Shown: one piece after another, positions 1 through 24,654 of the stretch | How the letters are laid out: each line of letters opens with the position of its first letter | How positions within the stretch are numbered: the first letter of the stretch is position 1 | Source of the DNA: Spinacia oleracea | Taxonomy: Eukaryota; Streptophyta; Magnoliopsida; Caryophyllales; Amaranthaceae | Assembly: GCF_020520425.1 (NCBI RefSeq) | Contig: NC_079488.1 | Coordinates: forward strand, 31,983,247-32,047,246 | DNA length: 64,000 bases | Direction of reading: 5' to 3' | The notes under the pieces: model-generated | Database searches by the model: none | Seen by the model: the letters and a program-made list of their open reading frames with translations, nothing else | Told to the model about the DNA's origin: nothing | Made by a program: the position numbers and the translations under genes

Positions 1-640
1 GAAGGTTTGTAGCCTATGAACCTTTTACGCTCATCACGAATCTGAGGGATATCTGTCGTGGAAGCACGGAGGACAGGGACCTGAACGTCCATGAGTTGAT
101 TGAATCAATGTCTGGTCTAAAGGTTAGTTCTCCCAACAGGTGTTATAGGATGGAAGTCCAAGAAACACATGTTCAGCTCCTTCGCACTAAACAGAGGGTA
201 GGCGTCCCACTAAGGTTCCATGTGGATCTTATGCGTTCATACTTTGATCGCCTAAGTCTACTAGGAACACCAATAAGCGAAAGGATGGCAGTCTCTATCT
301 TGCTCAATTCACTACACAGTGGGTTTGGTCGCTTCAAGAAACTATACCTAGTGAACCAAGAGAAGAAACAGTTGCAGAATTTGTTCACCTTGTCAGAAAG
401 GCTGAAATAATACTGGACTGTGAAGCCAAAGATTTACTCAAGGCTAGAAGGAGACCGTTCAAGAAAAGTGGAAAGTCCAAGGGCGATGCTAAATCAAAGC
501 AGGACAAGTCCACATCAAGCTGTCTTTATTGTGATGGAATAGGCCATTACAAAAGAGAATGTCCAAAGCTAAAGGAAGATCAGAAGAACGGAACAGTCGT
601 TCCATCTTCAGGTATTTTCGTTATAGACTGTATACTTGCT
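1..640 (+). pseudogene. copia gag fragment with zinc knuckle (5' truncated)
   Basis: Gag would form the retrotransposon particle. The frame from 96 gives a typical copia gag helical stretch, with the motif ILLNSLHSGF near 299-328. The frame shifts near 360 and continues as AEFVHLVRKAE, a basic region, and a CCHC zinc knuckle CLYCDGIGHYKREC (CX2CX4HX4C) at about 520-562. The gag of element 3 has a different knuckle (CFYCKKKGHWKRDC) and a different basic linker, although the two elements become almost identical from about 578 onward. The first 95 bases continue gag from outside the window. Confidence 0.8.
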
Positions 641-3600
641 AATTCAACTTATTGGGTATTAGATACAGGTTGTGGCTCACACTTATGTTCCAATCCACAG
701 GGACTAAGAAGAAGTAGAAAGTTAAGCAAGGGTGAAGTCGACCTACGAGTGGGAAATGGAGCACGGATTGCTGCATTAGCTGTAGGAACTTATTATTTGT
801 CGTTGCCCTCCGGGCTAGTTTTGGAACTGGAAGAATGTTTCCATGTTCCAAGTCTTACTAAAAACATCATTTCAGTTTCTTGCTTAGATGCTAAGGGATT
901 TTTCTTTTTAATAAAAGACAATAGTTGTTCGTTTTATTTTGAAGAGATGTTTTATGGATCTGCTAGATTAGTCAATGGACTTTATTTATTAGATCACGAC
1001 AAACAAGTATATAACATAAATACCAAAAAGGCCAAAAAGGATGATTCAGATCTCACCTATCTGTGGCATTGTCGATTAGGCCATATAAACTTGAAACGCT
1101 TAGAAAGACTTCAAAAGGAAGGAATTCTAGAACCATTTGACTTAGAGGATTATGGTAAATGCGAATCATGTTTACTTGGCAAAATGACAAAGCAACCTTT
1201 CTCTAAAGTTGGAGAAAGAGAAAATGAACTATTGGGTTTAATCCATACAGATGTATGTGGACCAATGAGTACAAATGCTAGAGGTGGTTTCAGCTACTTT
1301 ATCACTTTCACTGATGACTTCAGTAGATATGGTTATGTCTACCTAATGAAGCATAAGTCTGAATCCTTTGACAAATTCAAGGAATTTCAGAGTGAAGTAG
1401 AGAATCAATTAGGCAAGAAGATTAAGGCACTGCGGTCTGATAGAGGCGGTGAATATCTGAGCTATGAATTTGATGACCATCTGAAAGAATGTGGAATTCT
1501 ATCAGAATTGACTCCTCCTGGAACACCACAATGGAACGGTGTGTCGGAACGGAGGAACAGAACCTTGCTAGACATGGTCAGGTCAATGATGGGTCAGGCC
1601 AAACTTCCATTAGAATTTTGGGGACATGCACTAAATACAGCTGCACTCACTATAAATAGAACTCCGTCTAAAGCTGTCGAAAAGACTCCATATGAATTAT
1701 GGTTTGGAAAGCCTTCAAATGTGTCTTTTCTGAAGATTTGGGGATGTGAAGTATACGTCAAACGATTAATTTCAGACAAACTTCATCCAAAATCTGACAA
1801 ATGTATCCTTGTGGGCTATCCAAAGGAGACAAAGGGGTATTACTTCTACAATGCATCTGAGAACAAGGTGTTTGTTGCTCGAGATGGTGTCTTTTTGGAG
1901 AGAGATCACATTTCCAAAATGACAAGTGGGACATTTCCAAAATGACAAGTGGGAGAAAAAGTAGACCTCAAAGAAATTCGAGTCGAACAACAAACTCTAG
2001 AGAATGCTCAAGATGACATTCAGGATGAAACTCAGAGATCTTTAGAAGAATCTGGTGGGAATCATGGTCAATCTAGAAATGTTACCCCGCGTAGATCGCA
2101 AAGATATAGATCTCAACCGGAAAGGTACTTAGGTATTTTGACGAACAAGAGCTATGACGTTCTATTACTTGAAAGTGATGAACCTGCGACTTACAAACAA
2201 GCTATGACGAGCCCTAGCTCCAAGCAATGGCAAGAAGCCATGCAATCTGAATTAGACTCCATGTCTGAAAACCAAGTATGGGATTTGGTCGATTTGCCAG
2301 ATGGCTACCAAGCCATTGGAAGCAAATGGGTTTTCAAACTGAAAAAGGACAAGGATGGGAAACTTGAAGTTTTCAAAGCTAGATTGGTTGCAAAAGGTTA
2401 CAGGCAAGTCCACGGTGTGGATTACGATGAAACCTTTTCACCAGTTGCAATGCTAAAGTCTATTCGGATAATGTTAGCAATCGCTGCATATTACGATTAC
2501 AAAATATGGCAGATGGATGTCAAAACTGCTTTCTTAAACGGCGTTTTAACAGAAACTGTGTTTATGACACAGCCTGAAGGTTTTGAGGATCCAAAGAATG
2601 CTAAAAAGGTATGCAAGCTAAAGAAGTCAATCTACGGATTGAAGCAGGCATCCAGGAGCTGGAATATACGTTTTGATGAAGCAGTCAGTGACTTTGGTTT
2701 CATCAAGAACGCAGACGAATCTTGTGTATACAAGAAGGTCAGTGGGAGCAAGATTGATTTCCTAGTATTATATGTCGACGAAATATTACTTATCGGAAAT
2801 GACATTCCTATGTTGAACTCTGTCAAGATTTGGCTTGGGAAATGTTTTTCGATGAAAGATCTAGGAGAAGCACAGTACATATTGGGCATCAAGATTTACA
2901 GAGATAGATCTAAAAGGATGATTGGACTTAGTCAAAGCACTTATATCAATAAGGTGCTTGATAGGTTCAAGATGGCGGACTCCAAGCGAGGCTACCTACC
3001 CATGTCTCATGGAATAACTCTAAGCAAGACTCAGTGCCCAAAAACACTTGATGAGCGTAGACGAATGAATGGGATTCCATATGAATCATTGATTGGTGTA
3101 TGCTATGATATGTACACGCCCGGATGTTGCGTACGCACTCAGTGCTACGAGCAGATACCAGTCAGACCCAGGAGAGGCGCATTGGACTGCTGCCAAGAAT
3201 ATTCTAAAGTACCTGAAAAGGCACAAAGATGACTTCCTGGTCTATGGTGGAGATGATGAATTAATTGTTAAAGGCTATACGGACGCAAGTTTCCAAACCG
3301 ACAAAGATGATTTCAGATCACAGTCTGGGTTTGTCTTCTGCCTCAACGGGGGTGCAGTAAGCTGGAAAAGTGCTAAGCAAAGCACCATTGCGGATTCTAC
3401 AACTGAAGCGGAGTACATTGCTGCACATGAAGCAGCAAAGGAAGCTATATGGCTAAGGAAGTTCATAAGTGAACTTGGTGTAGTCCCCTCCATTAAAGGA
3501 TCAATAGCCCTGTATTGTGATAATAACGGAGCTATTGCACAGGCAAAGGAGCCTAGACACCACCAGAGAGTCAAGCATGTACTTCGTAGATTTCACCTTC

Positions 3601-3752
3601 TACGAGAGTTCGTTGAAAGAAAAGAAGTCGAGATAAACAAGATTGGAACTGATGACAACATATCAGATCCATTAACTAAACCTCTGCCGCAGGCGAAGCA
3701 CAACTCGCACATTGCAGCTAATGGAATCAAGCATATTGGAGAATGGCTTTGA
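641..3752 (+). pseudogene. copia pol (protease-integrase-RT-RNase H), frameshifted
   Basis: Protease shows the LDTGCGSH motif near 658. Next come the integrase zinc region (WHCRLGH ... CESCLLGK), the integrase core (HTDVCGP, SDRGGEY, WNGVSERRNR), RT (ARLVAKGYRQVHGVDY) and RNase H (GYTDASF, STTEAEY), ending at 3752. Against element 3 the breaks are clear. A 23-bp tandem duplication (1908-1930 and 1931-1953) introduces a stop and shifts the frame. An 8-bp deletion near 3097 shifts it again. The RT catalytic box reads YVDE instead of YVDD at about 2772. Each change alone should abolish a full polyprotein or RT activity. Confidence 0.95.
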
Positions 3753-4617
3753 TATCCCTGTTTAATGTTTTAAAGTTTTAGAGTTTAAATCTTTGTAAAA
3801 CATTATTGGTTAATCATTCACAATAAATGAAGAGAATTCATTTTTCCATTTAATTTGTGGTTTATTAAATGATGAGTCCCTTCAATTTGGCGATATATTC
3901 AAGATAGACTGTCAGGACCAGTCCTGTGACTAAGAAATGTCTATCAAGTGAACTTGAATGTCAAAGGTTGAAAATGGTCCCTAGTCGGAGTTTTCTATAA
4001 AATTGGACGCATAGAAAACGTTAGACGACTAGAATGCAAGATGACTAGTAGTTCTGTTTCTTGAACTATGTGGACATGGCAATGTCATAATCATTTGCAT
4101 AGATACTTACTTTGGGAAGACTAGTATCGGACAAGACCTATGAAACTTTACTGTAAGAGATGAAAATCTGTCATAAGTAAATTTCATTAAAATTATTAGA
4201 CACTAAATCCTCAATACCTGAGTGATTTGAGATTACTTGTTTAAGAACTGGTTGCTTTGACGTTGACCAACCGTCGCACCGTAAAAGGAGGCTATAAAGG
4301 CAACGCTCAGGTAATCACCTATCAAACGAAGTCTAATCTCAAGATCGCAAGATTGGGATTGTCCTCCCATAAATCGGGATGAGATTCTTAAAAGTTGTAC
4401 AAGGCCACTCGGAGAGCTAGAAACTGTGAAATGCATGGCCGTGCTCGGATGAATCATAGGCTATGATTATCTGTTTATTTGATCAGTTGAACTCTGAAAC
4501 CGAGAAACACCTCTGGACATAATAAGGATGACAACTCTTACCTTATGTTCAAGAGCAAGCATCGAGCGACAAAGGAATTAGGAAATGCACACTTGTCCCT
4601 AAGGACAAGTGGGAGAC
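3753..4617 (+). other. copia 1 3' untranslated region and polypurine tract
   Basis: No coding sequence. This stretch is shared in reverse complement by elements 2 (29681-30430) and 3 (47281-48144). It ends in GGACAAGTGGGAGAC (4603-4617) directly before the LTR, the expected place of the polypurine tract that primes plus-strand synthesis. Confidence 0.8.
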
Positions 4618-5993
4618 TGAAGGAAATAATGCCCTTGGTCCAAGTATGCATTCTATGTTAAGTCTAATAAATGCGGTTCAGTATTAATTAACAAGTTAAT
4701 AATTCAGTGAGATCAAGTGAGCTGAATGCCTAGCTAGAGGCCGCTTCAGTTCAAGTGGAATTAATGATATTAATCAACAGCTTACTCTTGACTGAACCCG
4801 TAGGGTCACACAAATAGTACGTAAACGGATCAAGTATTTAATGACATTAAATACTCCATCTATGGATATTCGGAATCGACGGATCTTGGTTTCAGTGGGA
4901 GCTGAGATCGTCACAGGCAAGAAAAGAATGCTCCGGAAACGATGATATTACCGGAAACGGAAATATGGATCGTATCGGAAATGTAAATATTATCCAAGTC
5001 GTAGATGTTGCCGGAAACGGAAACATGGTACGTATCGGAAAATATTATCGGAAATGGAAATATTGCCGGAATCGGAAATATTGCCGGAAACGGAAATATT
5101 GTCAGAATCGGAAATATTATCGGAATCGGAAAATAATTCCGGAAACGGAAATATTAAATATTTGTTCGAAACGGAAATTAATTCCGGAATCGGAAATATT
5201 AAATATTGTTCGTATCGGAAATAAATTTCAGAATCGGGAATTTAATCGGAAGCGCGTCGTACGAATTAGCATCGGACGAGACTTGCTAGACGAAGGCCCA
5301 GCACGAAGCCAGGCCACGCTCAGCAAGCCCAAGCGCCCAAAAACACGCTGCCAAGCCACGCCCGGTCCAGCGCAAGGCCAGGCCCAGCAATGGCCTTGGC
5401 GGGCACGCGGGGCTGCGACGAGTGGGCTGGCGCTGTGCGTGGGCCGCAAGGCCTGCGTGCGGTGCTAGCGTATCACTCGAAGTGTGTTACTCGAATCCTA
5501 AGGCTACCGGGATTTGTCATATGATTAAATCTAATCCTAAAAGATTTAGTTTGTTTAATTAGAGTCCTAGTAGGATTATAATTAAATAAATTAGTATCCT
5601 AATAGGATTCCAAATCCTTTTCCATAACTCTATAAATAGGTGCCTAGGGTCACATATTTAAACAGAGTATTCAAGTATTCAAAGTGGTTTTTGAGAGCAA
5701 AAATTCAGTCATACAATTGCCTAATAAGTGCCGAAAATTCTAAGTACCTTAAGGGCGATCCTAGTTGGTCAAGCTTAAGGCGGATCCGGACGTGCTATGG
5801 ACTATCTACGGAGGGACGACACTTGGAGTCCTAAAGACTTGTTCTTGTTCGGTTCGGGCTCAGCTAGGGAAGGCACGCAACAAAGAGTATGCATCTAAAC
5901 TATGCTAAATGATTATGTGTAAATAATATGCTTTCCTGGCTTTATGGTTTTTCCGCATGATTTATGAATTGTCATATGTATCATAACCTAACA
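4618..5993 (+). repeat. 3' LTR of copia element 1
   Basis: It begins TGAAGGAAATAATGCCC right after the purine tract and ends CATAACCTAACA, giving the standard TG...CA ends. Length is 1376 bp against 1426 and 1387 bp in elements 2 and 3. A TATA box CTATAAATAGG lies at about 5629-5639, so U3 is roughly the first 1.0 kb. About 400-700 bp upstream of it is a run of CCG-rich subrepeats. A GC-rich block lies at about 5290-5465. Confidence 0.95.
4940..5245 (+). repeat. Degenerate CCG-rich tandem subrepeats in LTR U3
   Basis: About 15 imperfect copies of an 18-20 bp unit built on CGGAAACGGAAATATT or CGGAATCGGAAATATT. The same array lies in every LTR of the family, inverted at about 29045-29360, 38075-38390, 46650-46965 and 55690-56005. 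It sits upstream of the TATA box, where plant LTRs often carry enhancer repeats. A regulatory role is an inference. Confidence 0.85.
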
Positions 5994-6242
5994 GAATATC
6001 TCTCTAGTGGGTGTGGGTTTAAGAGGTTGAATATGAGAGACACCTTTTATTTTCTTAAGCTAACCTAACCCTTGTATGACTGCATAATAGCTGAACCTGT
6101 TTGTTTAATGTTGTATGTCCCAAAGTTTTAAGTCTTCTATTATGCTTTACTCCTTTTGAAATGAATTATGACCCCAACAAACTTAAAATTATCCAGAGGG
6201 AAGAAACCTTAGTTTTGAAAGTTAGTACATTTTCAGACACAT

Positions 6243-6905
6243 AATTCACCGATGCTGTTCCAATGCTTAGGTTCTTAAATAAGGCTTGCATTGTTGGAAA
6301 TGTTGAGGAAGAACTCACACCTGATGGAGTAGCCTTAGATCCATGGAACCTTTGTACCGTAAATCAGGTTGAAGAGATAAAAGCCCTGATAAAGGTAATC
6401 CCAATATGGTGAACAGGGATTATGATGTCAGTAACTACCACTCAGTTCACATTCCCTGTTCTACAAGCTGGGTCTATGGATCGTCATATCACCTCAAATT
6501 TTCAAGTTCCTGCTGGTTCCTTCAGGACATTCACAGTCATGAGTCATCTCAATAATGTTATGGATTGTCATTTATGATCGCATTGTGATTCCTTTAAACA
6601 CGAGAATAACAGGAAAACCAAGACAATTGAGTGTAAGGAAACAAATGGGAGTTGGTCTCATACTCTCATTCATGTCAATGGTTGTGTGCGCGATAATTGG
6701 GGTGTTCGGCGTGAGAGAGCTATTAAGGAAGGATTCTCAGATGATCCAAAAGGGGTGACTGACATGTCAGCTTACTGGTTGCTGTTTCACCATTGGATTT
6801 CTGGAATGGCTGAGGCTTTTTTTATAGTTGGCCAAAATGAGTTCTTTTACTCTGAATTCCCAAAGAGCCTGCAAGGAGTTCGCAAGAAGGCAAGAAACTC
6901 ATTGC
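6243..6905 (+). pseudogene. NRT1/PTR (NPF, NPF1-like) transporter fragment
   Basis: NPF proteins are proton-coupled nitrate, peptide or hormone transporters with 12 membrane helices. The visible pieces come from the second half: [31 protein letters not shown] (6264-6410), then QAGSMDRHITSNFQVPAGSF, YDRIVIPL (about 6560-6600), GLILSFMSMVV and FSDDPKGVTDMSAYWL ... GQNEFFYSEFPKS (to about 6875). A TGA follows VIPIW at about 6410. Frames change near 6545 and again near 6690, and the last helices are missing. The wording is closest to the NPF1 clade as I remember it. It is dead, same-sense with the fragments downstream, and lacks its first half. Confidence 0.8.
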
Positions 6906-6983
6906 CTTCACAGTCAAATTAGATTTTTTGATTTAATTTCTCTATGAATATTAGTTAACTGACCCTGCATCCTACAAATGCAG

Positions 6984-7604
6984 GAACAAATCCTTACAAA
7001 TGAGATTCAAGAGCTTAATCACAAGGTCTTTTAAAGGAAATACCTATCTTTTAATGTTGTCACAAGTATGATTGCACATTTTACCATATTCAAATCCCAA
7101 TTTCTTTTTACAGGGGAATATCATTCAGCAGGAAAATATGGAACTATGTGAGAAAGTGAACCTAATTCGCCAAGAAAACACCGACTCGTATAAGAAGGTA
7201 TGAGAAGGCCGTTGAGAAAACATGACCCTATGTAGAAATTGACATAATAACACCATCGATCTCAATAATGTTCTCTACAAATTCCTTGTTTCGAATTAGT
7301 CCCTTATTGTTCTCTGAAGTAAGGTCCTACACAGCTACACATATTTTATGCTATCACATTTTCAGTTTCTTTAATCTTGTTCAAATTGCTCATGTATTAG
7401 ATTAGGTTAAGATGGATGATCCCAGCATATCAATTTACCTTTTCTTGGCTTTATAGTATAGGAAGCGTGAATGGGAAGAGCAGAAATTCCTTGATTCTAA
7501 ATGGATTTAGCAGCAGAGAGGATCCGCAAGAGCTCATTCATCTTCGATCAAGCCATTTTGAAAAACACGGAAATCAGGCAATAGGAGTAAAAACAGCATT
7601 GGGG
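6984..7604 (+). pseudogene. MADS-box (AGL17-like) K-domain and C-terminal fragment
   Basis: Two exons with correct splice sites match the K-box of AGL17/ANR1-type MIKC MADS factors. One is 6984-7025 (42 nt, EQILTNEIQELNHK), the usual size of a MIKC K-box exon. The other is 7114-7197 (84 nt, [20 protein letters not shown]...). A third piece at about 7454-7604 reads SVNGKSRNSLILNGF...TALG and then stop, resembling the family C-terminus; its frame does not join cleanly to exon 2. The DNA-binding MADS domain is absent, so it cannot act as a transcription factor. Confidence 0.7.
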
Positions 7605-9457
7605 TAAGATTATTACGTCTGTTATGAAATGTTCATTTGCAAAAACTATTGCTGAAACTGATCCAAGCTTTTCGATGTAACGCAGCAGACTATGATGGTA
7701 TTAAGAAACTAAGCATGTATGAATCAAAAAGTTATAAGATCGCCAGTATCGAACAAATTTTCTGTACAAAAGACGAGAGAAATGCATGGAGGTAGAGTGA
7801 TTATTGGACATAATTCAGTACGTTGCTGCATCAACAAGTAGATGGAAGCCAACAACTCTCGTAAGTGCAATAATTTGGCATCTTTGGCAATTAATATTTT
7901 TTTTACCATGCTTCTGTTTTATGTTATAAGTGTACTTATAAGCGCTGAATATGTGACATGACCTACTAAAATTCCTTAAATTATGCATATGGTCACAAGG
8001 TATTTGAGGTTGGTAGGAGGACCCACATAGAAGTCGTTCTGTAGAGTCCATATATACTCACTCGTAATCACTTTTCGTCACCTTCTTTTTAGTGAACTGT
8101 CCTAATAGGAAAGAGTAGTTTAGTAGTTGCATGATTTAGTCGGTTAGTAGAGGGAAATGAAAAAACAATACTACTATAAATAAGGGAGAGTAGGCAAAGA
8201 GAAAGGTATCCAGATGTTATCTTAGTTTTATTTGATAACTATCCTCTATGTTCTGTTATTCCATATTATCAATCTACCTCTCTTTTCTTTCTATAAATTC
8301 TAATGTAGCTATGCTGATGCATAACATTCTCTTACAATATTGTTCATCTTACACTCTACCGTACCCATGGCTAGTATGCTAAAAGCCCATGTACGTTTAT
8401 TAATGCTAATTGGCAACTGAAGGTTATGATTTAGTGTTAAATTGTCAATGTTGTTAAAGATGTTTTGTAACTGTCAGACTATCAGTATGTTGCAAGTTAG
8501 CTGCTTTTTCTTTCTTTTATCTGGTGGTCAGCTGCTGAATTTATTATAAAAGCTTATTTAGATAATTAAAACAGCTTACATTCCTCATTCCTTGGCTTAC
8601 TTCGTAGAACATTTCTATGTTGTCTGCAATCATTCAGGGTCATGGGCACATATTGATTGATTGTCCACTATATAGTGTAGCATTGGATGCATGGAAATTT
8701 GTCTATGATTAAACAGCGAGGTTCTATTCTCCCATGCATGGTAGTAATTGTAGTGGTTTACCTTCTTCCTTTGACTCGAGTTCTGATGAATTAATCTGTT
8801 TAACCTTGCATCCAGTTGAGAAAGTATGTAATTTATACATGGGGCTAAGTTAATCGTACATCATAAGTGTTTTCGAAACTGTTAGTTACCCCCATGTCTC
8901 TAGGAAAACACCAACTTGGTGAACTTTTTAAATCTTGTTTTGATTTTGATTTTGATTTTCTCCTCTTAAAGTTTGATTTGTTAAAAAAATGTGATTATGA
9001 TTTTGTTAGTTTGATGGGGTAAACTAAATAAAAAACAAATTCAATTTTTTTAAAAAATTCAAATTTGAATGATACTTTTAGGAAGGTTGGTTTGAATTTT
9101 TGATACAATATTTTGTTTGCAACTATTATTGGGTGGAAGCGGCATGCATGTGTTAGGTTTAATTAATTTTGAAATGTAAATTGTCCCTTTCCACGTATTG
9201 GAATTTGGGATCTTGCGCAATTATTTTTTCCAATTGGTCTCCTTTTTTCCAGCCTTTTCTATCTTTATTTATCATTGTTGATTGATTGATTAGATTTTGA
9301 AGTGTTTTCTGGGTAAAAAATTTGAAATTTTCTTTGTTTTTGGGTTTGATTTGATTAATTGCTGGATGCTAATAATTTGTCATGTGAATTCTGCAGATGA
9401 TTAAACTGGATTGATTGTTGATTGTATATATTATTGGTTGAAGCTGTGGTTCCTCAA
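7605..9457 (+). other. No gene seen; probable upstream and 5' UTR region of the epimerase fragment
   Basis: AT-rich sequence without convincing exons. A short (TTGATT)-like run lies near 8938-8960. The last few hundred bases may be the captured 5' untranslated region of the epimerase fragment that starts at 9458. Confidence 0.5.
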
Positions 9458-11259
9458 ATGCTCGGGTTAACCAGAGCGCGAAATCAATCGAGAAACGGTA
9501 GATCTTTGCATGTTGCAGGTTGGTTTTCTTTCATCATCAATTTTATTTTGTTTCTTTTAGTTTTTGTTTTGGTGTATAAGGAGCCACGAAGAACAATGGC
9601 GTAGCCAAGAATTGATCAGGGTACCACCTACCTAGACTTTAACCAACTAAGCTAATCAGGCTCTAGAAATTATTTCTGTTAGTAATTGATTTTTTATTTG
9701 GCAATTGAATTTTTGTTGAAGTTATACATTTAGCTAATTGAAAAAGAAGAAAAGGAAAGAAGGGTAGTATGTAAAAGTAACAGAAAGCTGATTTTCGTTT
9801 CTTCTTTCGCATTTAGTGAGAAATGATGGATCTCGTTTAACCTGTTCTGTAAGCTGAATCAGTTGTGTTTGTTAGAGTGTAATGCTTTTCTGGTGCTTTT
9901 CTCGCATGTCTATAATGTCACAAAGTACATGATGCTAATCTAAAAGGTATGCAGATTAGGCTGATGAAGTATATAATGTAGGTTGTCTGGTCTGATTATA
10001 TGTTATTTGTTTCCTTTGGCTTTGTAGGCATGGATTTCGCTGATCCAAAGCGGAAAGCTAATGTCGTAGGTAAAATAGTCGTAGCTGCTGGGTTAATTGC
10101 ATTTTGCCTTATTATGATCAAGCAGTTTCCAACTTTCAACAGCCCCAGCCAAGTAAGTTTAATATCACAACCTTTCAGTTATATCTATATGTATGGGTTC
10201 AAATGAGTGTTTGCATTGAAAACAGACAGGTAAAGTTGTGAGTCAACATCTAAGCTTGTTGGTGGATTTATTATTTTGTTATGTAGTGGTAGGGTAAGCC
10301 TAAGTTAAGATAGAAATTCTGGATTGAGTCTCCTTTAAGACATCAATTTTTCTTCTTTTAAGTAACTGTGACTTTGTTATGTACTCCATATCAATTAGTA
10401 TTAGTTTTGTCTCATTGGAAGGTCCTTCGTTATAGTCTAATCTTGGATCCTGTGATGTTTAAGTAATCCACTTTATGTTTTCATTTGTTCTTAATTTCTT
10501 TTTTCATTTCTATTCAGTTTTCCCGCCGTGAAATGGGTGTCACTCATGTCCTGGTAACTGGGGGTGCTGGCTTTATTGGATCCCATGCAGCACTAAGACT
10601 TCTAAAAGACTCCTATCGTGTGACAATTGTGGTATCCCCTTAATCATCGTTGTTGTCCACTACTCATTTAGTTCTATAGGTTTACAAAGAGATCGTTTTT
10701 GTTGTGTAGGACAATCTTTCTCGTGGGAACCTGGATGCTGTTAAGATTTTGCAACAAATGTTTCCAGAACCAGGAAGACTTCAGTTTGTATATGCTGATC
10801 TGGGAGATGCTAATGCTGTATCCTTATCGTGGCAGGCCATTGTTTATGTGCTATTATTCTTTCCTTTGGGCCTTCCCTATCAGAATTTGAGATAAATATG
10901 AATTGGATTCAACAGCATTATCTAGATCAATTTGCCAGTGTAATTTTTATACTGCAACTTGCTGATAGTACTATCTCTCGTAGTTATTCTGAAAGAAATG
11001 TGCCTTAGGCACTTTCCATGAGGCTTCAATTTGGCATACAACTGAACCTTTTAAACTGATATCTAGCAAACATATATTTCTATTTTGTCCTGTCTCATTT
11101 CCAGACCGTAATTTAGACAGAATAAGAGACTTTTATTCTTCGTATTTTCCCTTAATATAAATGCCAGGTAAACAAACTTTTCTCAGAAAATGCTTTTGAT
11201 GCTGTGATGCATTTCGCTGCTGTTGCTTATGTTGGAGAGAGCACTCTTGACCCTCTTAG
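9458..11259 (+). pseudogene. UDP-arabinose 4-epimerase (UXE/MUR4-like), first five exons only
   Basis: The family interconverts UDP-xylose and UDP-arabinose in the Golgi for cell-wall synthesis. Five exons with GT-AG borders keep one open frame: 9458-9518 (MLGLTRARNQ...), 10028-10152 (GMDFADPKRK, then the membrane anchor VVAAGLIAFCLIM), 10518-10631 ([20 protein letters not shown], the NAD-binding Rossmann glycine motif), 10710-10817 ([11 protein letters not shown]...YADLGDANA) and 11168-11259 ([20 protein letters not shown]). The next exons, which would bring the catalytic Tyr-X3-Lys, are absent; within 610 bp a glucanase exon starts. The open frame and intact splice sites point to recent capture. 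Roughly the first 35-40 percent of the protein is present. Confidence 0.85.
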
Positions 11260-11867
11260 GTAAGCATTATTTATATAGCCGTGTTTGAATGTTTCTATGA
11301 AGTTTGGTTAGAACACTTAAAAGTTGTAGTCATATTTTATTGGGTTATTTCCTACACATTATAGTTGGGAATATATTTTTAGAAGTGACTACAGTTGATG
11401 GTAGGTGGAATATTTACATGGAAATGTGAAAACTTCTTCCTTACATTACCTTATTTTTCTTTTGATAAATAAAAATTTCTACTTCAAGAGATTCAAAATT
11501 GAATAACGGATATATGTTAAATACTACTTTTTCATCTTATTCATTATGGCTAGGGTTGCTAGACTATTGGTGTGTAAATGTGGATGAGAAATAAATAAAG
11601 AAATAAATGTATTTAGAAATGATAGGACGGTTTACAATGACGATTCCGGTATCTGGGCCTTGGTGCGTTTCTCTTCCGCCCTTTCTTGTGGTTTACTGTT
11701 TATTTATCATCTGCAATTGTGGTTTATGGTCATTTAGATGTTTTTAAAATATAATATGCTTTTAAAACAGATTGCTTTTAAAACACATTTTTTTGTTTGA
11801 TTACAACATGTTAATCTGTAAATAAATGGACTTAAATTGTGAGTAATTGCACAACTTTTTCCTGTAG

Positions 11868-12016
11868 AAAGTACGGTATCTAATAGACCTGCACGCAGCA
11901 CCCGGGTCACAAAATGGGAATGAACACCGTGCAACTAGAGATGGATCTCTTGAATGGGCAAAAACTGATGAAACTGTTCAACAAAGTGTTGATGTTATCG
12001 ACTTCTTAGCTTCACG
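11868..12016 (+). pseudogene. GH5 glucan 1,3-beta-glucosidase-like exon fragment
   Basis: The frame reads IDLHAAPGSQNGNEHRATRD and goes on GSLEWAKTDETVQQSVDVIDFLASR to a donor at 12017. This is the conserved IDLHAAPGSQNG block of plant GH5 exo-beta-1,3-glucanases. The codons just before it (KYGI) are out of frame, so there is a small indel near 11880. Only one exon of the gene is present. It lies between the epimerase and NECAP fragments in the same sense. Confidence 0.7.
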
Positions 12017-12794
12017 GTACATTCCCAGAACTAAATGATTCAGTTCCCTTCTATCGTAGTTTCATGTACCTTACACTGCTTTTCTGCCTGTCAAAAGAGG
12101 GAAACATGTATCGAAACCATCTGTTTCAATTCTTTCTGAAATTTCCCTTAGATGTTCTAGAGAGTTTGGATTTGTGGAAAGAACATGAATCAGACTGACA
12201 TGAACGACATGAATCAGCTTTTGTTGGGATAGGGTTTCATGAGAGAACTGAAGCTTATGACTTCCAAGCTGCTCTGCATGACCATATGAAGTATCTCTTT
12301 GTTTATCTTTTCTGCAATTATAATTTCTTTTTGTGTTAGATGCAACAAGTAAACATATAAAAAGTAGTTTTCTGTGTTAGATGCATGTTGTCTTCAAACA
12401 ATTACCTGAAAGAACTGAGGCATGCATTGAATAACTAACTGTCTGTTTGATATCCAAATTTCCAATTTAGATATCTTGATAACAAGAAAACTGCTGAAGA
12501 AACGGAGCAGCAATTCTAGAATTCTTCAGCCATTGATTACAGTTTGAAAGATGGAGAGACCCTTGTTCTTCAGTTAAAAAGTAAGCTCGTTATTTGTCTG
12601 TTTCCTCACTGATTAAATAAATAATTTGCTACTCGAATGAATGATAATCTGTTTATGCTCAACATTTTATTGTTAGAAACCTAGTGGCAATATAAAGCTG
12701 AAATCCTTTGATGAGGGTGTGAACAACCTATGAATAACAGATAAAAGTAAAGCTAAAGCTCCCTTGTTTTCTATCAGAGCACCTCCTCCTCCAC

Positions 12795-13606
12795 CAGGGG
12801 CGGACCTACATGGACCTTGAGGGGACCAAAGGGACTCCCATTTTCTGAAAAAATAAACCAGGAATCTATATATTCTTGCTTAATGTCCGCTCAAAATAAT
12901 AATAAATTGGTGTATCTTAGTGGTTAATCTACTTGCTGTAACTCTATCCTTTGAACGCAGAAGTCTTGTGTTCGAGTCCCGACCCTACACTCTTCAAAGC
13001 TATTACACTCTTTCCCTTACCCGTGACCATTCATCTTCATGGTTTCTTACTTTCTAAAATGTTTTTGGCTTTATTTTTTACTTTTACCATTTTCTGATGT
13101 TTTCATGATTTATTTCTTGCTCTTCTCTTGTTTTTTTTTCTTCTGATTTTAGTACCGTATTTATATTTTATAATTGCTTAATTTCATTGCATTTTTTAGG
13201 GGTCTAATTATATAATAACAATATGCCCCACAAGTATTGAAAAAGATGCAACTTTTTTTTATACAATAGTGTAGTTTTGTCATTCTTTTTGTTAGTAATT
13301 TGTAATGAATCAGATTTCTTATAACATGTAAAAACTCATCGTATACACTCGTAATAATTTTTTTCTTGAGATGAATCGCTGTAAATTATTGTTTGGACTG
13401 ATATATTGATTTCTATTGCTCTTAAGACTACACACAAATTCCTAAATCTTCACTGCATAATTTTGTTATGGATATTAAGAAAATTTATTACCTAACGTTC
13501 CCTAATTCCCCTTAACAAAAGGGGTAAAATAGAAGGATAAGCAATTTTGTTTTTTAAAAAAGTAAAAAGTTGGACCCCCATTTCTATATTACTGAGTCCA
13601 CCACAG
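12795..13606 (+). mobile_element. Non-autonomous hAT element (812 bp)
   Basis: It begins CAGGGGCGGACC and ends GAGTCCACCACAG, an imperfect terminal inverted repeat of the hAT type, and is flanked by a perfect 8-bp duplication TCCTCCAC (12787-12794 and 13607-13614), as expected for hAT insertion. It has no transposase. A tRNA-like block lies 114 bp from the left end. A relative lies inverted at about 39960-40842. Confidence 0.9.
12909..12990 (+). other. tRNA-like sequence inside the hAT element
   Basis: It starts GGTGTATCTTAGTGGTTAA, resembling an A box, and has TGTGTTCGAGTCCCG, a good B box, spaced as in a tRNA gene. The acceptor stem is imperfect (GGTGT against the CCCTACAC end). The same block sits at a similar distance from the end of the related element at 40632-40709. 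Probably not a working tRNA gene. Confidence 0.5.
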
Positions 13607-13816
13607 TCCTCCACCACCAACCCTCTCACCAACTTCTTCTCCTAAAACTCCTAGATCCCCAAGTTCTAATCCTAATAAAATATTCGAAGAGGAGAAAGAA
13701 GATCCCAGTAAAGAGTAGGTTCAACCTGATTTTAATTTTAAGGAAAATCAAAGTTCAGAAGATACAACAGATGAGGACTTTAGGGATTTTCAAGCAGCTG
13801 GATGGTTTTTTAACTT

Positions 13817-14068
13817 GTATAAATAAACTTCTGTTCATAAATGAAATTTCTTTCGGACAAGGCTGGTGTACATTGTGCATGATCAAGTCTATGCTATGCG
13901 AATTTTTAAGGCATGGCAACGTTCAGAAGGTGAGGAAAGGAGAAAAGATTGATATTTACACAGATGTGTGGTGATGGTGAGTAGTTAAATTGTTAACTTT
14001 TGGCTTAACCCAACTTTTTCGCTCGTTTATGTGATTGATAGTTGATAGACGACATACAACGGGAAACA
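13817..14068 (+). other. No gene identified; short exon-like stretch
   Basis: One frame at about 13860-13955 reads LVYIVHDQVYAMRIFKAW and on through a charged stretch, which looks coding but which I do not recognise. It may be a further captured exon. The rest is AT-rich. Confidence 0.3.
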
Positions 14069-14073
14069 GGTAC

Positions 14074-16451
14074 TGTAATACCCATATTTTTAGGGATTTT
14101 ATTAATCATTTTATGCATTTTTTTTAATATATATTTGATATTAAATTATTTTGGAGGGAAAAATATTCAAATATTTTGGAGGGAAAATATTCAAATGTAA
14201 ACATTATTTTCAAAACTGAATTAAATTATATTTTTCATATTTTATTAATTCCTAATTCTATTAGGAATCAATTTTGGAGAAAAAGAGTTTTAATCAACTT
14301 AAAATTATTTTATAAATCCAAAAATTACGTTTAGTATTTTATAAAATCAGTTTTATATTATATGATATTTATGAGAATATATTTCGGAATTTGTTTTGGA
14401 AAAATAAGATAATTCTATTTAAAATTGGATTTAAAGAGTTTTACCAATTCAAAATTCCCTAAAAATCCGAATTCTTTGAGATAAATTCTGAAAATTTCAG
14501 GATAAATCTTAATTAATTATTCAAGCCTCTGTTTAAAATTTCGTGATTTTATCTTTTATATTTCTATTTTAAACGATTTTACTCTAAATCGAATATCACC
14601 AAAATCATGACTAGATTCAGAATCCTATCACAACTTGAACACCAACCACGGCCATACCCCTTAGGGTTCCATTATAACCCTAACCCTAATCCTACACCTA
14701 TAAATACCCCCTACTTCATTCATAATTCCTCACACCAAAAGTTGAGAGTTTTCCCAAGCCCGCTCTTAAACTTCTTCTCCCTCTTTGGCTCTAAACCTTC
14801 TTACCTAAAACCCTTACACAACCACCACGACACCCCCGCCGTGCACTCCTTGCCGCCGACGTCTACCTTTTGGTGTCGTGACTTCCACACCCCAATTGTT
14901 TTCAAAGCCTTCTCTTTTACGGTCAGTTTTTACTATTTAAAGTCTTCTAAATTAATGCCGTAATTTTTAAAAAGTTTATTTTTAAAACCATAGTTCTAAA
15001 TTTTGATTTATAATACTATTATTATGCATTCATAACTCATGAATTAAATTTATGTCCATTAGATTTATTTTTATTAATTTAATTGTTTAATCATGAATTA
15101 ATTAGGGTTTTATTTATTAATTGTTAGGAACTCGTGAGTGATCCGTAGTATGATCAAATTTATCTTTGTGTGAGGTATTATTTAATCAAGGTACGTGTGT
15201 GTGGCTAGATTGTTATAGATTGAAATCTATGTATGGTTTGATTATTAACTTTAAATTGAAAATTGTGAATTAGTGATTTTGAATTGTTTCTTGATTTGTG
15301 AAAATTGTTTGAGGATTTTTGAAAGGTTAAATATTTTTCTTGATTTTAATATGATGATGGATTTGTTCAAGTTGTGTTTGAAATAGTTTGTTTGGTTTTG
15401 ATGAGTTATAAATCTTTATTTCAAAATACGTTGTTTTCTTTAAAAATACGTTTGATTAAATAAAAGAAGGATTGTTGGTTTATCATATGGTTGGAACTGG
15501 ATGGTCTTTCATGACATTATTATACTTTTATAAAGTCTCAAGGTGGAATGGATTTCATGGAACTTTTATGTTCATACGCATCACTTGTTGTGTAAGTCGA
15601 GGGTCACTTGTTGACTATTATTTGGTTAGTACCCCAATGTATAGATTTGTGATGGAATACTAGCATGGGGGTGTGCACATTTAGGAAGGAAGGGGAGATA
15701 AGAAGAGGTGTTTTGATTTCCATATTCTAATTGGAATCTATTTTTTTGGAAAGTTTCTCCTTTTGGAATATTGTTATATTTGGAAAGTTTATATATTTGG
15801 AATATTTCTTTTCATGGAAAGTTTCTACTTTTGGAAAGTTTCTATTTTGGGAATCTTAAATCTTGAAATGTTTATACTTTTGAAAAGTTACTATTTATGG
15901 AAAGTTACTATTTATGGAAAGTTACTATTTATGGAAAGTTTCTAATTTTGGAAAATGAATATTCTATGATTTCAATTAAGCAAGTTTGAATTAAATGGTT
16001 TGTGAAAGTATGTTCAAATATATATAAATGTTTTACATGTCTTGCATATATTCGTACTTAGCTTTTGCTAACCCGTATTTCCTATTTGTTTTGGCTTGGC
16101 CCTGTTCACCTTTTGGTGAGCAGTTTTCAGGAACTTGATGTGATGATGTGACATGCTTGCATACGGGATTAATGGAGAGTTCACTAGTTAGGATTTATTT
16201 TTCTAAGTTGGTTTCATTTGTGAGTTCAGATTTTAGTATTTTAATTTCAAGGGTTTATTCAATATACACTATTACTATTTCGATTATCATTATTCAATAA
16301 AAAAAAAAAGTATTGAGTTATTCCGCTGCATTAGTTGAGTTAATTAGCCTTTAACGTAATCACGTGGCAGTAATACTCCTAAGTTTCTCTCCATGTTAGT
16401 TTGTTCAAATAAATGTTGGTTTTAAAAAGAGAGAAATTTGGGGGTGTTACA
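14074..16451 (+). repeat. Solo LTR (2378 bp)
   Basis: It begins TGTAATACCCATA and ends GGGGGTGTTACA, so the ends are TG...CA with a short inverted repeat, flanked by the 5-bp duplication GGTAC (14069-14073 and 16452-16456). No internal protein region is present. A TATA box CCTATAAATACC lies at about 14697-14708, just after an AACCCTAACCCTAA telo-box-like motif. The length and ends fit a long LTR, perhaps Ty3/gypsy; orientation follows the TATA box. This looks like the product of recombination between two LTRs. Confidence 0.85.
15737..15950 (+). repeat. Tandem GGAAAGTT-type repeats within the solo LTR
   Basis: About 12 imperfect repeats of a 16-17 bp unit such as GGAAAGTTACTATTTAT, the last three nearly exact. 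Confidence 0.8.
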
Positions 16452-16456
16452 GGTAC

Positions 16457-17168
16457 AAGATAAAACTATGGATGATAGGAAGACAGAACAAGTTGGGTTA
16501 ATACATTCTTTGTAATTATTTTTGTGGAGATGGGGGCGGGGGGGTTAGGGGTGACTTTTATATATACTCTTATTCAGAGTTGGGTCTAATCTACTCAGCG
16601 CATTCTGTCCTGCTCATATCACTTAGTTTTTGGTTGTGTCAGCTGTTCTTAGTTGTTCTTTCAAAGTACTAGCAACACTGGTGCCACAGTTCTATTCTCC
16701 GAAGTATGCTGATGTTTTTGTGTTCTGGCTTGCATGAAGTTTGCTGGTCCGTGGCAGTGCAACAAGTTAGCTCAGGGTTGCTGGGTAGTCTGTTGTCTGT
16801 TGCTGGTTGTGTTTGTTGCTCCGTGAAGTTTTAACCAAAGTGGTCAGGTTGACTTGGTGTGGTGTTGTTTGCTATAAAAACATAGTCCCAATGAGTTTGC
16901 ATAATAGCCCAAGAATTTTTGTAATTGATTTCTTATTTATATACCTCATGTGTTTGCATATTTGTAATTTTTTATCATTTCATATCCTCAGTTGTCGGAA
17001 AAGGAGGTGTTGCAACGTGATATATCAGCTCCCTTACAAAACAAATGTTATTAGTAATCCTTAAACAATAGGTTTGTTCCTAAAAATACATGATTATAAT
17101 ACTAATTAAACATTCTTGATATATTTTAATAAAAATAACTACGCCATACGTTTTTCCCTACCTTGGGG
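16457..17168 (+). other. No gene identified
   Basis: AT-rich. An exon-like stretch after an AG at about 16992 reads LSEKEVLQRDISAPLQNK, not recognised. This is the 3' subterminal region of the proposed Helitron C. Confidence 0.35.
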
Positions 17169-17202
17169 GACGGCGCGCGATAGCGCGTCGGCCAACAACT
17201 AG
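17169..17202 (+). repeat. Helitron C 3' terminus: hairpin plus CTAG
   Basis: Ten-base arms GACGGCGCGC (17169-17178) and GCGCGTCGGC (17183-17192) pair at 8 of 10 positions around a GATA loop. Six bases later comes CTAG (17199-17202), then T. This is the canonical Helitron 3' end; insertion is between A and T. Confidence 0.8.
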
Positions 17203-22157: not shown

Positions 22158-23190
22158 AGATCTTATTATTATATAGAAGAGTATATTGTATTTTGACTAT
22201 GCGCCCTGTGTTTTAGTTATAGATTTGTTAAGAAACTTACAAGCTTTAACTCTGAAGGGGAAAATTTGTCCAGTCTTGAGATCCTTGATTAGCCTATCAA
22301 GTTTCATTTTAAAAACCCTACAAAGAATGTCCGGTCTATCCTCTGATCTGAGCCCTCTTTTTTGAACAAATCGGGTTATTTCGGGCCACTTTGGATTGCA
22401 AGTGTATGTGATAAATAAATCTGGATATCCATACCACTTACAAAGAGCCATGGAATCTTGATAATTTTGCATCATATATCTCGCACCACCTGTAAATGAT
22501 GAAGGTAAAATTATCCGTTTTCCGGTCGATGCAGGATCGGTGTCTCCTCTTAACACAGCATCTGTAAGATTCTTATACAATTTCGCTCTTAGTTGCTTCT
22601 GATGTGTTCGTACAAAATTTAGTCTTTCAGTCTCAATCATTGTATAAGCATCTACCAGAAATTGTTGAAATAATTTTCTTGACAACAACAATGTTGCAGC
22701 TTCATTGACTCTATCTTGAATCCTGTATGCAAAAAACTCTCTCATACTCAATTTTTTTCTCTTCCTCGTCCCGTCAGTGCCTCTAAATGGAATATCAACC
22801 CTATAACCATCCTCACCGTATGGAAATAGTAACGGGTATTGCATTGCCAGGTAAGAAGGATGAAGCTCGTTAATACGTTGTAGTAAACCTGATTGCTTTT
22901 CAACAATAATATCCCTATCTGATGTGCTTCCAATATCACCTACAATAAGTGTTACTACTTTAGATGCACTTGGGAGGTTATATGTCCTCCCATCAGTTTC
23001 CCTTCTTCCAATGAGTTTAAGTTTGACATTTTGAGAATTATTATGACTAAAACGATCCCTTGCCATTCTAAAAGCTTTAGCAATAGGGTTGTGTTGGTCG
23101 AGCATTGCAGTGAGATCATTAATAATTGCATCATCAATGCCGTCATAATTTCTTGATTGGCCATGCAAAAAGAACAGACAGATTGTTAGA

Positions 23191-23191
23191 A

Positions 23192-23264
<73 letters not shown>
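23191..23264. repeat. (TA)n(TG)n microsatellite
   Basis: About 10 TA units followed by about 26 TG units, inside the RepHel intron 23300-23152. Confidence 0.95.
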
Positions 23265-23266
<2 letters not shown>

Positions 23267-24654
23267 CTATGATAGTGCATAAAATAAATTAGCTACAAAC
23301 CTCCAAGCACGTTTTCTGTTTGAAACCTCATTTTCTGTATCGTATATGTACAGTTGAGGGAATTTTGGAGATGATCCAGAAGTTGGCAACAAACTTCCTA
23401 TTTGGTGGTAGTTTTGGCCTGCTAACTTAAAGACATAAGGCCCTCGCCCATGGTTGACTGTTGAGTCAATCTTTCCCCCATTGAGGTAAATGAGAGCATA
23501 CCATTTAAACACCTTATATTTTCTTGAACAATTCTACTCTGTGCATCATCATTTTTCAAAAATTCATTGAGTGGTGATGGTGGTTCTTTTAACAAAGGAA
23601 GTTCGACTTTTCCTTGCATGCAACACAATGAGAATTTAGGATTTTTTGAATTTCTCTTTTTCTCTAATCTTTCCTCATACCATAACATTGCACCACAGAA
23701 TTTACAAATGTATATTGGATCTCCAATGTCCCAATACCCTACGTAAACATAATATCAGGATGGTTAGAGCTGCATCATAGACTTTTTGATAAGCAACAAT
23801 AATTATAATTTGTAAGTACCTTGAAATGAAGTCGATGAATAATTGTACTCACCTATACACATAGCTAGAACCATTCAGATATCATCTCCAATAAATCATA
23901 TAAGGCATGATACAAAATAAAACGATAATGTAATATACCGTGCGGTTCATGACCTTCATTATCCATATGAGTATCTTGTGACAATGTTGAAGCAGAAGCA
24001 TCTATGCCTATACATACAAATGAAGAATTAGATGCTTGTTGATGAGATAAGTAGCATTTGTGTAGTAGCCTACTGATATCATTGTGGGTGTAACTATACT
24101 AAGCTTCATATGTGTAACAATTTACATACCAGATGCTGTATAAATTTCCATGTTTGGGATGTTGCTTGTAGAAGAATTGACAATACTATCTTTTTCAATC
24201 AAACCATGTTTCTTGGGAGGGTGGTTTGCTTCATGAGATTCCAAAATTTAAACATGGTTAGCTTATAGTAGTCAAATTATCATGATCTATGCGTATTCAA
24301 TTTGTATAAGTTAATTAGTGAAATAAGTAAAATATAAAGTTAAATAGGATAGACCTGAACCATTCGAAATGTCGGACATAGGGATCCTCTGACCACGTAC
24401 CAGACTTTCAACATCTCTTCTTTTTCCAGTACCTTTTGTTTGCTTTACACCACCTGCATAATTTTTAATATGTTTGATCAAATCTAGCAATGATGTATTT
24501 CTCTATTAAAGAAAAGTAGTTTCTGCCACAATACATCACGAGTATGATATTCAGTTTAGATATTACTAGGATTTTCGTTGTTATTTGATCTTCGGCGTTT
24601 ATTTGCGAGAATTGCTTTCCTATTGAGCCGTGCCGAGGTACAATTTGACTCCAT

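What the first reader, a model, noticed from the sequence alone, without database searches (positions are those of the whole stretch)
6243..13816. Five unrelated host-gene fragments in one orientation: a gene-capture mosaic
Seen: NPF transporter, MADS-box, UDP-arabinose 4-epimerase, GH5 and NECAP-like pieces follow one another on the + strand within 7.6 kb, introns kept. Known: plant Helitrons capture genomic gene pieces, introns included, usually in their own sense. Inference: this is a chimeric Helitron cargo that might yield a fused transcript, with epimerase exons 1-5 supplying an open frame that encodes a Golgi-type membrane anchor.
Basis: partly seen in the sequence, partly recalled or inferred. 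Interest (0 to 1): 0.75.

Follow-up and report, generated by a model that had tools for sequence, protein, structure and literature searches.

The report
Jumping gene carrying six gene pieces
A plant mobile element of the Helitron type has picked up pieces of six unrelated genes, and related copies in the same genome show that one piece was later pasted into the middle of an older one; this is a clear example of a known process, not a new kind of thing.

Summary
The window lies in an 894-Mb plant genome. The element runs from about 5.9 kb left of the window to 17202. It begins TCTACAAC and ends with a hairpin plus CTAG, at A^T sites. Seven copies share the cargo; the 34-base 3' end occurs at 123 places against 0 for a control. 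An LTR retrotransposon and a solo LTR are nested in it.

There are six gene pieces, not five: a non-coding SGF11 piece, NPF transporter, MADS K-box, GH5, epimerase, NECAP. All six are in sense orientation, each with a separate donor locus.

The most informative point is that the epimerase piece sits inside the GH5 piece and replaces about 0.23 kb of it. Four related copies keep GH5 uninterrupted; one other keeps the whole epimerase piece and one its last 88 bp, with the same right junction. So the epimerase was captured later, internally. This fits gap repair ('filler DNA') and not capture at the element's ends.

The epimerase exons are open in the window copy but frameshifted in the only other full copy found, and show no sign of selection. 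Fused transcription could not be tested. Stepwise Helitron capture is already published. This is a new member of a known kind.

The parts
1..5993 (+). Right part of an LTR retrotransposon nested in the Helitron (whole insert: W -4563 to 5993; right LTR 4618-5993). The Helitron's own 5' end (TCTACAAC) lies at W -5860 (L028:4140).
   Evidence: 5-bp duplication GAATA on both sides; the two LTRs differ at 23 of 1376 sites; c2 to c7 have no insert at this place.
5994..17202 (+). Right-hand part of the non-autonomous Helitron
   Evidence: Block structure shared with 6 other copies at other loci; ends read.
5999..6119 (+). End of the captured non-coding SGF11 piece, probably intron (its start lies left of the nested retrotransposon, at W -5004)
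   Evidence: 92% match to C3:17052383-17052959 minus, which ends some 60 bp upstream of an exon encoding PF08209 Sgf11, E 2.5e-16.
6118..6875 (+). Captured NPF (POT family) transporter exon piece, with stops in all three forward frames
   Evidence: Donor C1:122843659-122844401, 71 differences in 741 sites; PTR2 hit on the donor ORF; window frames.
6866..8709 (+). Captured MADS-box piece (K-box exons and introns)
   Evidence: Donor C3:129611067-129612263 minus for W6917-8016 and C3:129589192-129589917 minus for W8010-8709; start at 6866 from the K-box exon SLQGVRKK and a C6:97.70 Mb relative that matches from W6862; K-box PF01486.
8833..8938 (+). Captured GH5 piece, left part
   Evidence: 94% to C3:13219080-13219971 minus.
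8939..11528 (+).
   Evidence: Donor C6:118498369-118501011, 82 differences in 2588 sites; c3, c4, c5 and c7 match the GH5 donor without break across this place.
9458..9518 (+). Epimerase exon 1 (coding)
10028..10152 (+). Epimerase exon 2, encodes the hydrophobic stretch VVGKIVVAAGLIAFCLIMI
10518..10631 (+). Epimerase exon 3 (start of the epimerase domain)
10710..10817 (+). Epimerase exon 4 (2-bp deletion here in copy c2)
11168..11259 (+). Epimerase exon 5, last captured exon
11528..12079 (+). Captured GH5 piece, right part, including the exon from 11868
   Evidence: 92% to the C3:13.22 Mb donor; PDB 8z2w match of the donor exon.
12091..12158 (-). 68-bp GH5 piece in reverse orientation at the GH5/NECAP joint
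   Evidence: 96% to L032:1984-2051, opposite strand to its neighbours.
12217..12796 (+). Captured NECAP piece, first part
   Evidence: 89% to C4:186882706-186883550 minus; DUF1681 on the donor exons.
12797..13606 (+). Later dispersed-repeat insertion inside the NECAP piece
   Evidence: Contiguous in the donor, about 10 bp duplicated at the edges; copies at 67-84% elsewhere.
13607..13881 (+). Captured NECAP piece, second part
   Evidence: 90% to the C4 donor.
14074..16451 (+). Nested solo-LTR-like insertion
   Evidence: TGTAATACCC...GGGTGTTACA with 5-bp duplication GGTAC; absent from c2 to c9, 8 of 8 other copies looked at.
17171..17190 (+). Terminal hairpin (8-bp stem)
   Evidence: Folding z-score -3.21, 2 of 200 shuffles as good.
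17199..17202 (+). Helitron 3' end CTAG, followed by host T
   Evidence: 34-base end at 123 places in the genome, control 0.

Best explanation
A non-autonomous Helitron, about 10 kb without the two later LTR insertions, that gathered pieces of six host genes at different times and spread. Shown here: the ends, the copies, the donors, and that the epimerase piece sits inside the older GH5 piece with loss of about 0.23 kb, in the window copy, c2 and (as a remnant) c6 only, among seven copies. Inferred: one capture by repair of a break inside the element, using a distant locus as patch ('filler DNA'), followed by replicative transposition with Rep/helicase supplied by an unidentified autonomous relative. 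The cargo is most likely decaying without function.
For: Ends: the seven copies align from TCTACAAC, preceded by A in 6 of 7 (T in c3); 3' hairpin plus CTAG or CTAA, followed by T in 9 of 9 ends read (c3's own 3' end was not in hand). Same block order at 7 loci. Donors. Internal capture: c3, c4, c5 and c7, 4 of 4, match the GH5 donor without break where the window carries 2,590 bp of epimerase (the missing stretch is 234 bp in the donor, 215 bp in these copies). c6 keeps the last 88 bp of the epimerase with the identical right junction. The donor-rooted tree groups window, c2 and c6 (support 83 without c8 and c9, 74 with them). Junctions show about 3 and 1 bp of shared bases (my reading, no control made). 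Similarly, c9 keeps 961 bp more of the NECAP piece where the window has GH5 material and 58 unassigned bases. No constraint seen on the epimerase exons.
Against: Distances do not fit a simple clock. The epimerase piece differs from its donor by 3.17% (introns 3.7%), more than the 1.9-2.8% between the window copy and c3, c4, c5 or c7, which lack it. GH5 (5.0%) likewise exceeds the distance between the window copy and c9, 2.6% in the NECAP core, 3.2% in another NECAP stretch and 4.0% in the 3' end. Donor haplotype diversity, an unsampled donor paralogue, or exchange between Helitron copies would be needed. No autonomous partner was found: none of 100 listed 3' ends lies within 40 kb downstream, on the same strand, of any of 150 listed Rep matches (lists incomplete). 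The tree support for window+c2+c6 is moderate. The shared bases at the junctions are few.
Confidence: 0.88

Rival explanations
1. The fused cargo is transcribed from a promoter in or near the element and spliced into a chimeric mRNA; the epimerase exons give a short membrane-anchored protein with a role or with an effect on the parent gene.
For: All six pieces are in sense; the 5 donor and 4 acceptor splice sites of epimerase exons 1-5 are kept; the frame is open for 166 codons, and splicing onto the GH5 exon would give a 171-residue product ending in STLDPLRKYGI.
Against: c2 is frameshifted; between the window copy and c2 there are 6 non-synonymous against 1 synonymous change; exon changes are no rarer than intron changes. 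The piece ends before further donor exons that can be seen in the donor's frames, and the GH5 exon carries a stop shared with its donor.
Confidence: 0.12
2. The older 5' block (SGF11-NPF-MADS-GH5) and the NECAP-3' end block came from two different Helitrons that recombined, rather than by single captures from host genes into one element.
For: c8 and c9 carry the NECAP-3' end block with other DNA upstream. Donor distances of the 5' block (4.4-9.6%) exceed the divergence between the window copy and c8 or c9 (2.6-4.0%). The GH5/NECAP joint is complex, with an inverted 68-bp piece.
Against: The NPF-MADS joint was found only in the 7 copies, all of which also carry the NECAP core; no copy of the 5' block with another 3' block was found, though no search was made for that alone.
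Confidence: 0.3
3. Capture happened at the element's ends (end bypass: transposition fails to stop at the 3' end and takes in flanking DNA).
For: Could account for the outermost pieces in principle.
Against: The epimerase piece lies inside an older captured piece that is unbroken in four copies, and the 9 3' ends read keep the family's own terminus.
Confidence: 0.05
4. The mosaic is a segmental duplication or an assembly artefact.
For: None found.
Against: Seven copies with different flanks and nested insertions; donors on C1, C3 (three loci), C4 and C6.
Confidence: 0.01

Closest known systems
Maize gene-capturing Helitrons with stepwise capture (Dong et al. 2011, PMC3288121; passages seen, among them part of the abstract)
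   Same: Non-autonomous Helitrons holding several gene pieces; related elements differ by captured pieces; internal loss also occurs.
   Different: Here the later piece is shown inside an older captured piece with about 0.23 kb lost, the unbroken state surviving in four sister copies, and donors found for both the piece and the segment it broke. Whether the maize paper has such a case beyond the passages seen I did not check.
Insect Hel1 Helitrons, filler DNA model (Han et al. 2019, PMC6544945; passages seen, among them most of the abstract)
   Same: Internal acquisition argued to exclude end bypass and to support break repair.
   Different: In the passages seen the acquired pieces are short (about 70-170 bp) with 2-13 bp end junctions; here it is a 2.6-kb genic piece with about 1-3 shared bases.
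Pack-MULEs and Pack-CACTA elements (named in the review PMC13317346, passages seen)
   Same: Transposons carrying gene pieces.
   Different: Those have terminal inverted repeats; here the ends are TC...hairpin-CTRR.

Membership tests
Helitron | 5' end TC | tested here: met
   TCTACAAC where the alignment of 7 of 7 shared-cargo copies starts (the pattern requires these letters). c10 starts differently, TCTTATACC. The 5' ends of c8 and c9 were not found.
Helitron | 3' CTRR preceded by a short hairpin | tested here: met
   CTAG in 7 and CTAA in 2 of 9 ends (its pattern asks for CTAA or CTAG); 8-bp stem ending 8 nt before CTAG, z -3.21. Three ends elsewhere read CTAT.
Helitron | Insertion between A and T without target duplication | tested here: met
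   5' A in 6 of 7, 3' T in 9 of 9. No empty site was available.
Helitron | Dispersed copies sharing the termini | tested here: met
   123 places within 3 mismatches of the 34-base end, control 0; 13 places at 93-100% identity over the 753-bp 3' region, a lower bound as 40 of 167 candidates were scored.
Helitron | Rep/helicase gene (autonomous elements only) | tested here: inconclusive
   No listed 3' end within 40 kb downstream of a listed Rep match; only 150 of 353 Rep candidates scored, 100 of 123 ends listed. In c10 the longest frame is 245 codons and lies in an LTR-like stretch.
Gene-capturing Helitron | Cargo from separate host loci with introns | tested here: met
   Six donors; epimerase introns kept with splice sites.
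Gene-capturing Helitron | Chimeric transcripts | not testable with these tools
   No RNA data.
Pack-MULE / Pack-CACTA | Terminal inverted repeats with 9-bp or 3-bp target duplication (recalled) | tested here: not met
   Read by eye, the ends and flanks show neither.

The most novel reading that the evidence does not exclude
This Helitron lineage grows and renews its cargo mainly from within: breaks inside older captured pieces are patched with distant genic DNA, repeatedly and in sense orientation (6 of 6 pieces here, plus an F-box piece in c8), so cargo is overwritten and not only appended. The surviving pre- and post-capture copies would make the repair mechanism directly readable.
Probability: 0.3. 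Interest if true: 0.5.

Novelty: new member of a known kind. Interest (0 to 1): 0.35.

Why it matters
How Helitrons take up host gene pieces is still argued (end bypass against filler DNA; PMC6544945, passages). This family preserves the state before the capture (four copies), after it (two copies) and a decayed form (one copy), together with the donor of the piece and the donor of the segment it broke, so the event can be read base by base. The gene products themselves look dead.

Tried and rejected
Segmental duplication was rejected: donors are at six loci and the copies have different flanks. Pack-MULE or CACTA was rejected: the ends do not fit. Purifying selection on the epimerase frame was rejected, with few changes to count. 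c10 (C3:156739726-156750201) was tested as the autonomous partner: it shares about 390 bp of 5' end and 190 bp of 3' end (plus an unrelated LTR-like stretch) and shows no long Rep-like ORF (longest frame 245 codons). Pairing Rep matches with 3' ends by coordinates gave nothing within 40 kb on the same strand; three 5'-3' end pairs came out instead (spans 8.7, 8.7 and 26.4 kb). Pfam on 16 ORFs (8 of c10, 7 of c8, 1 of c9) gave one hit, an F-box LRR piece in c8. Pfam did not recognise the GH5 exon; a PDB search did. Pfam and PDB searches with a 28-residue MADS piece alone gave nothing; the joined 51 residues hit K-box. Pfam on one NECAP donor ORF alone gave nothing convincing. One protein search for GH5 paralogues in the genome did not complete.

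Distances used the 7 copies where segments existed: c3 is missing from the 3'-end table, c4 from the 5'-end table, c2 from the 11528-11985 table and c6 from the 7498-8938 table; the epimerase table has only the window, c2 and the donor.

Full report
SETTING. The window is G000:C2:31983247-32047246 of an 894-Mb assembly in 242 contigs. Size and six large contigs fit spinach; that is recalled, no call names the organism. W means window coordinate; W0 is the base just left of the window, negative values lie further left.

THE OBSERVATION. A search with W6243-7500 found the same NPF-MADS joint at seven places at 96-100% identity, two of them over the first 1.2 kb only (15 matches, the others partial). 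I fetched their surroundings and aligned them: cW (the window copy), c2 (C5:106.58 Mb), c3 (C2:67.78), c4 (C5:12.39), c5 (C5:31.03), c6 (C2:73.89), c7 (C4:176.64). They share one block order from W -5860 to W17202, apart from insertions and deletions. Donors for each piece were found at separate loci. Protein families agree: POT/PTR2 and Epimerase, DUF1681 (NECAP) and K-box, glucan 1,3-beta-glucosidase for GH5 (no Pfam hit). A sixth, non-coding piece, probably an intron of an SGF11-type gene (C3:17.05 Mb, PF08209 on the next exon), lies between the Helitron 5' region and NPF, split by the nested retrotransposon. The MADS piece has a second donor match, W8010-8709, about 21 kb further along the same strand of C3, so today's donor locus probably gained an insertion.

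WHAT IT IS. The seven copies align from TCTACAAC, after A in 6 of 7 (T in c3). The 3' end is a GC-rich hairpin and CTAG or CTAA, before T in 9 of 9 ends read: cW, c2, c4, c5, c6, c7, c8 (C3:71.12), c9 (C5:79.88) and c10 (C3:156.74). These are Helitron ends. The 34-base end occurs at 123 places within 3 mismatches, against 0 for the reversed control. Thirteen places hold the 753-bp 3' region at 93-100% identity, a lower bound. Later insertions in the window copy: an LTR retrotransposon at W -4563 to 5993 (duplication GAATA; LTRs differ at 23 of 1376 sites), a solo-LTR-like insert at 14074-16451 (duplication GGTAC), and an 810-bp dispersed repeat inside NECAP that the other copies also carry.

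HOW THE CARGO GREW. In c3, c4, c5 and c7, 4 of 4, the GH5 piece runs on unbroken and matches its donor at about 90%. In the window and c2 a stretch of it (234 bp in the donor, 215 bp in those copies) is replaced by the epimerase piece W8939-11528. c6 has lost most of the middle but keeps the last 88 bp of the epimerase with the identical right junction. The tree rooted on the donors groups cW, c2 and c6 (support 83, or 74 with c8 and c9), so one capture explains all. At the left junction about 3 bp and at the right about 1 bp are shared between recipient and donor (my reading; the left one lies in a simple repeat, and no control was made). Similarly, c9 keeps the NECAP piece to donor position 3511, whereas the window starts at 2550, preceded by 58 unassigned bases and a reversed 68-bp GH5 scrap. 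Both are replacements inside the element. This favours repair with filler DNA over end bypass, in line with the argument made for insect Hel1 (PMC6544945, passages). Stepwise capture as such is published for maize (PMC3288121, passages).

IS ANYTHING EXPRESSED OR KEPT? The NPF piece has stops in all three forward frames, and the GH5 exon carries a stop present in its donor. The epimerase exons 1-5 are open for 166 codons with 5 donor and 4 acceptor sites kept and a hydrophobic stretch at residues 33-51. But c2 has a 2-bp deletion in exon 4. The window differs from the donor by 4 non-synonymous and 1 synonymous change, c2 from the donor by 4 and 0, and the two copies from each other by 6 and 1; between the two copies exons changed at 7/498 and introns at 19/2079. 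That looks like neutral decay, on small numbers. The lower exon than intron distance to the donor (5/500 against 77/2088) is roughly what constraint on the donor alone would give: half the intron rate would be about 9 changes, 5 are seen. If exon 5 were spliced to the GH5 acceptor before W11868, the product would stop after 171 residues; unspliced it stops after STLDPLR. All six pieces are in sense; by chance 1 in 64 for this strand, and an F-box piece in c8 is in sense too.

WHAT DOES NOT FIT. Substitution distances to donors are 3.2% (epimerase), 5.0-5.7% (GH5), 5.3% (SGF11), 6.2-6.8% (NECAP), 9.6% (NPF), 9.5% and 4.4% (two parts of MADS). Copies c3, c4, c5 and c7, which lack the epimerase, differ from the window copy by only 1.9-2.8% by segment, and c9 by 2.6-4.0%. 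So captures look older than the split from copies that lack them. Donor diversity, unsampled donors, or exchange between Helitrons would explain it; I could not decide. An autonomous partner was not found in incomplete lists.

NOVELTY. A spinach TE survey counted 1297 Helitrons (PMC6337768, passages). Searches for spinach Helitron gene capture (listings only, 25 of 89 and 1 of 1 papers shown) showed no title or abstract start describing this family; the library is partial. The finding is a well-resolved new member of a known kind.

Noticed in passing
window 22200-23288 (- strand): A Helitron_like_N (Rep) match at 22260-22736, E 2.0e-43. One search lists a 778-residue open frame; my own stop-to-stop reading gives 363 codons. 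No end of the family described here was found beside it in the window, so it probably belongs to another Helitron.
   Followed up: partly
C2:67721779-67773483 (copy c3): The 3' region of c3 is broken up: the part matching W16564-17016 occurs twice (C2:67750451 and C2:67732475) and the last 191 bp lie at C2:67721779, suggesting nested insertion plus local duplication.
   Followed up: no
C2:88965918-88974946 and C4:151901931-151910960: Two candidate Helitrons of about 8.7-9 kb with the same 5' end and a one-base hairpin variant (GTTAGC); this variant makes up 33 of the 45 listed one-mismatch 3' ends. A possible larger subfamily, cargo unread.
   Followed up: no
C2:93684655, 93699728, 93706555: Three 3' ends within 22 kb that read CTAT instead of CTAG, looking like a local array.
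   Followed up: no
L037 (c8, C3:71119700-71129699): A sister Helitron with the NECAP core and the same 3' end but other upstream DNA, including an F-box LRR piece (PF24758, E 8.4e-7), in sense.
   Followed up: partly
C3:129589917-129611067: The MADS donor locus appears to have gained about 21 kb after the capture, since the Helitron keeps the two flanking parts joined.
   Followed up: no
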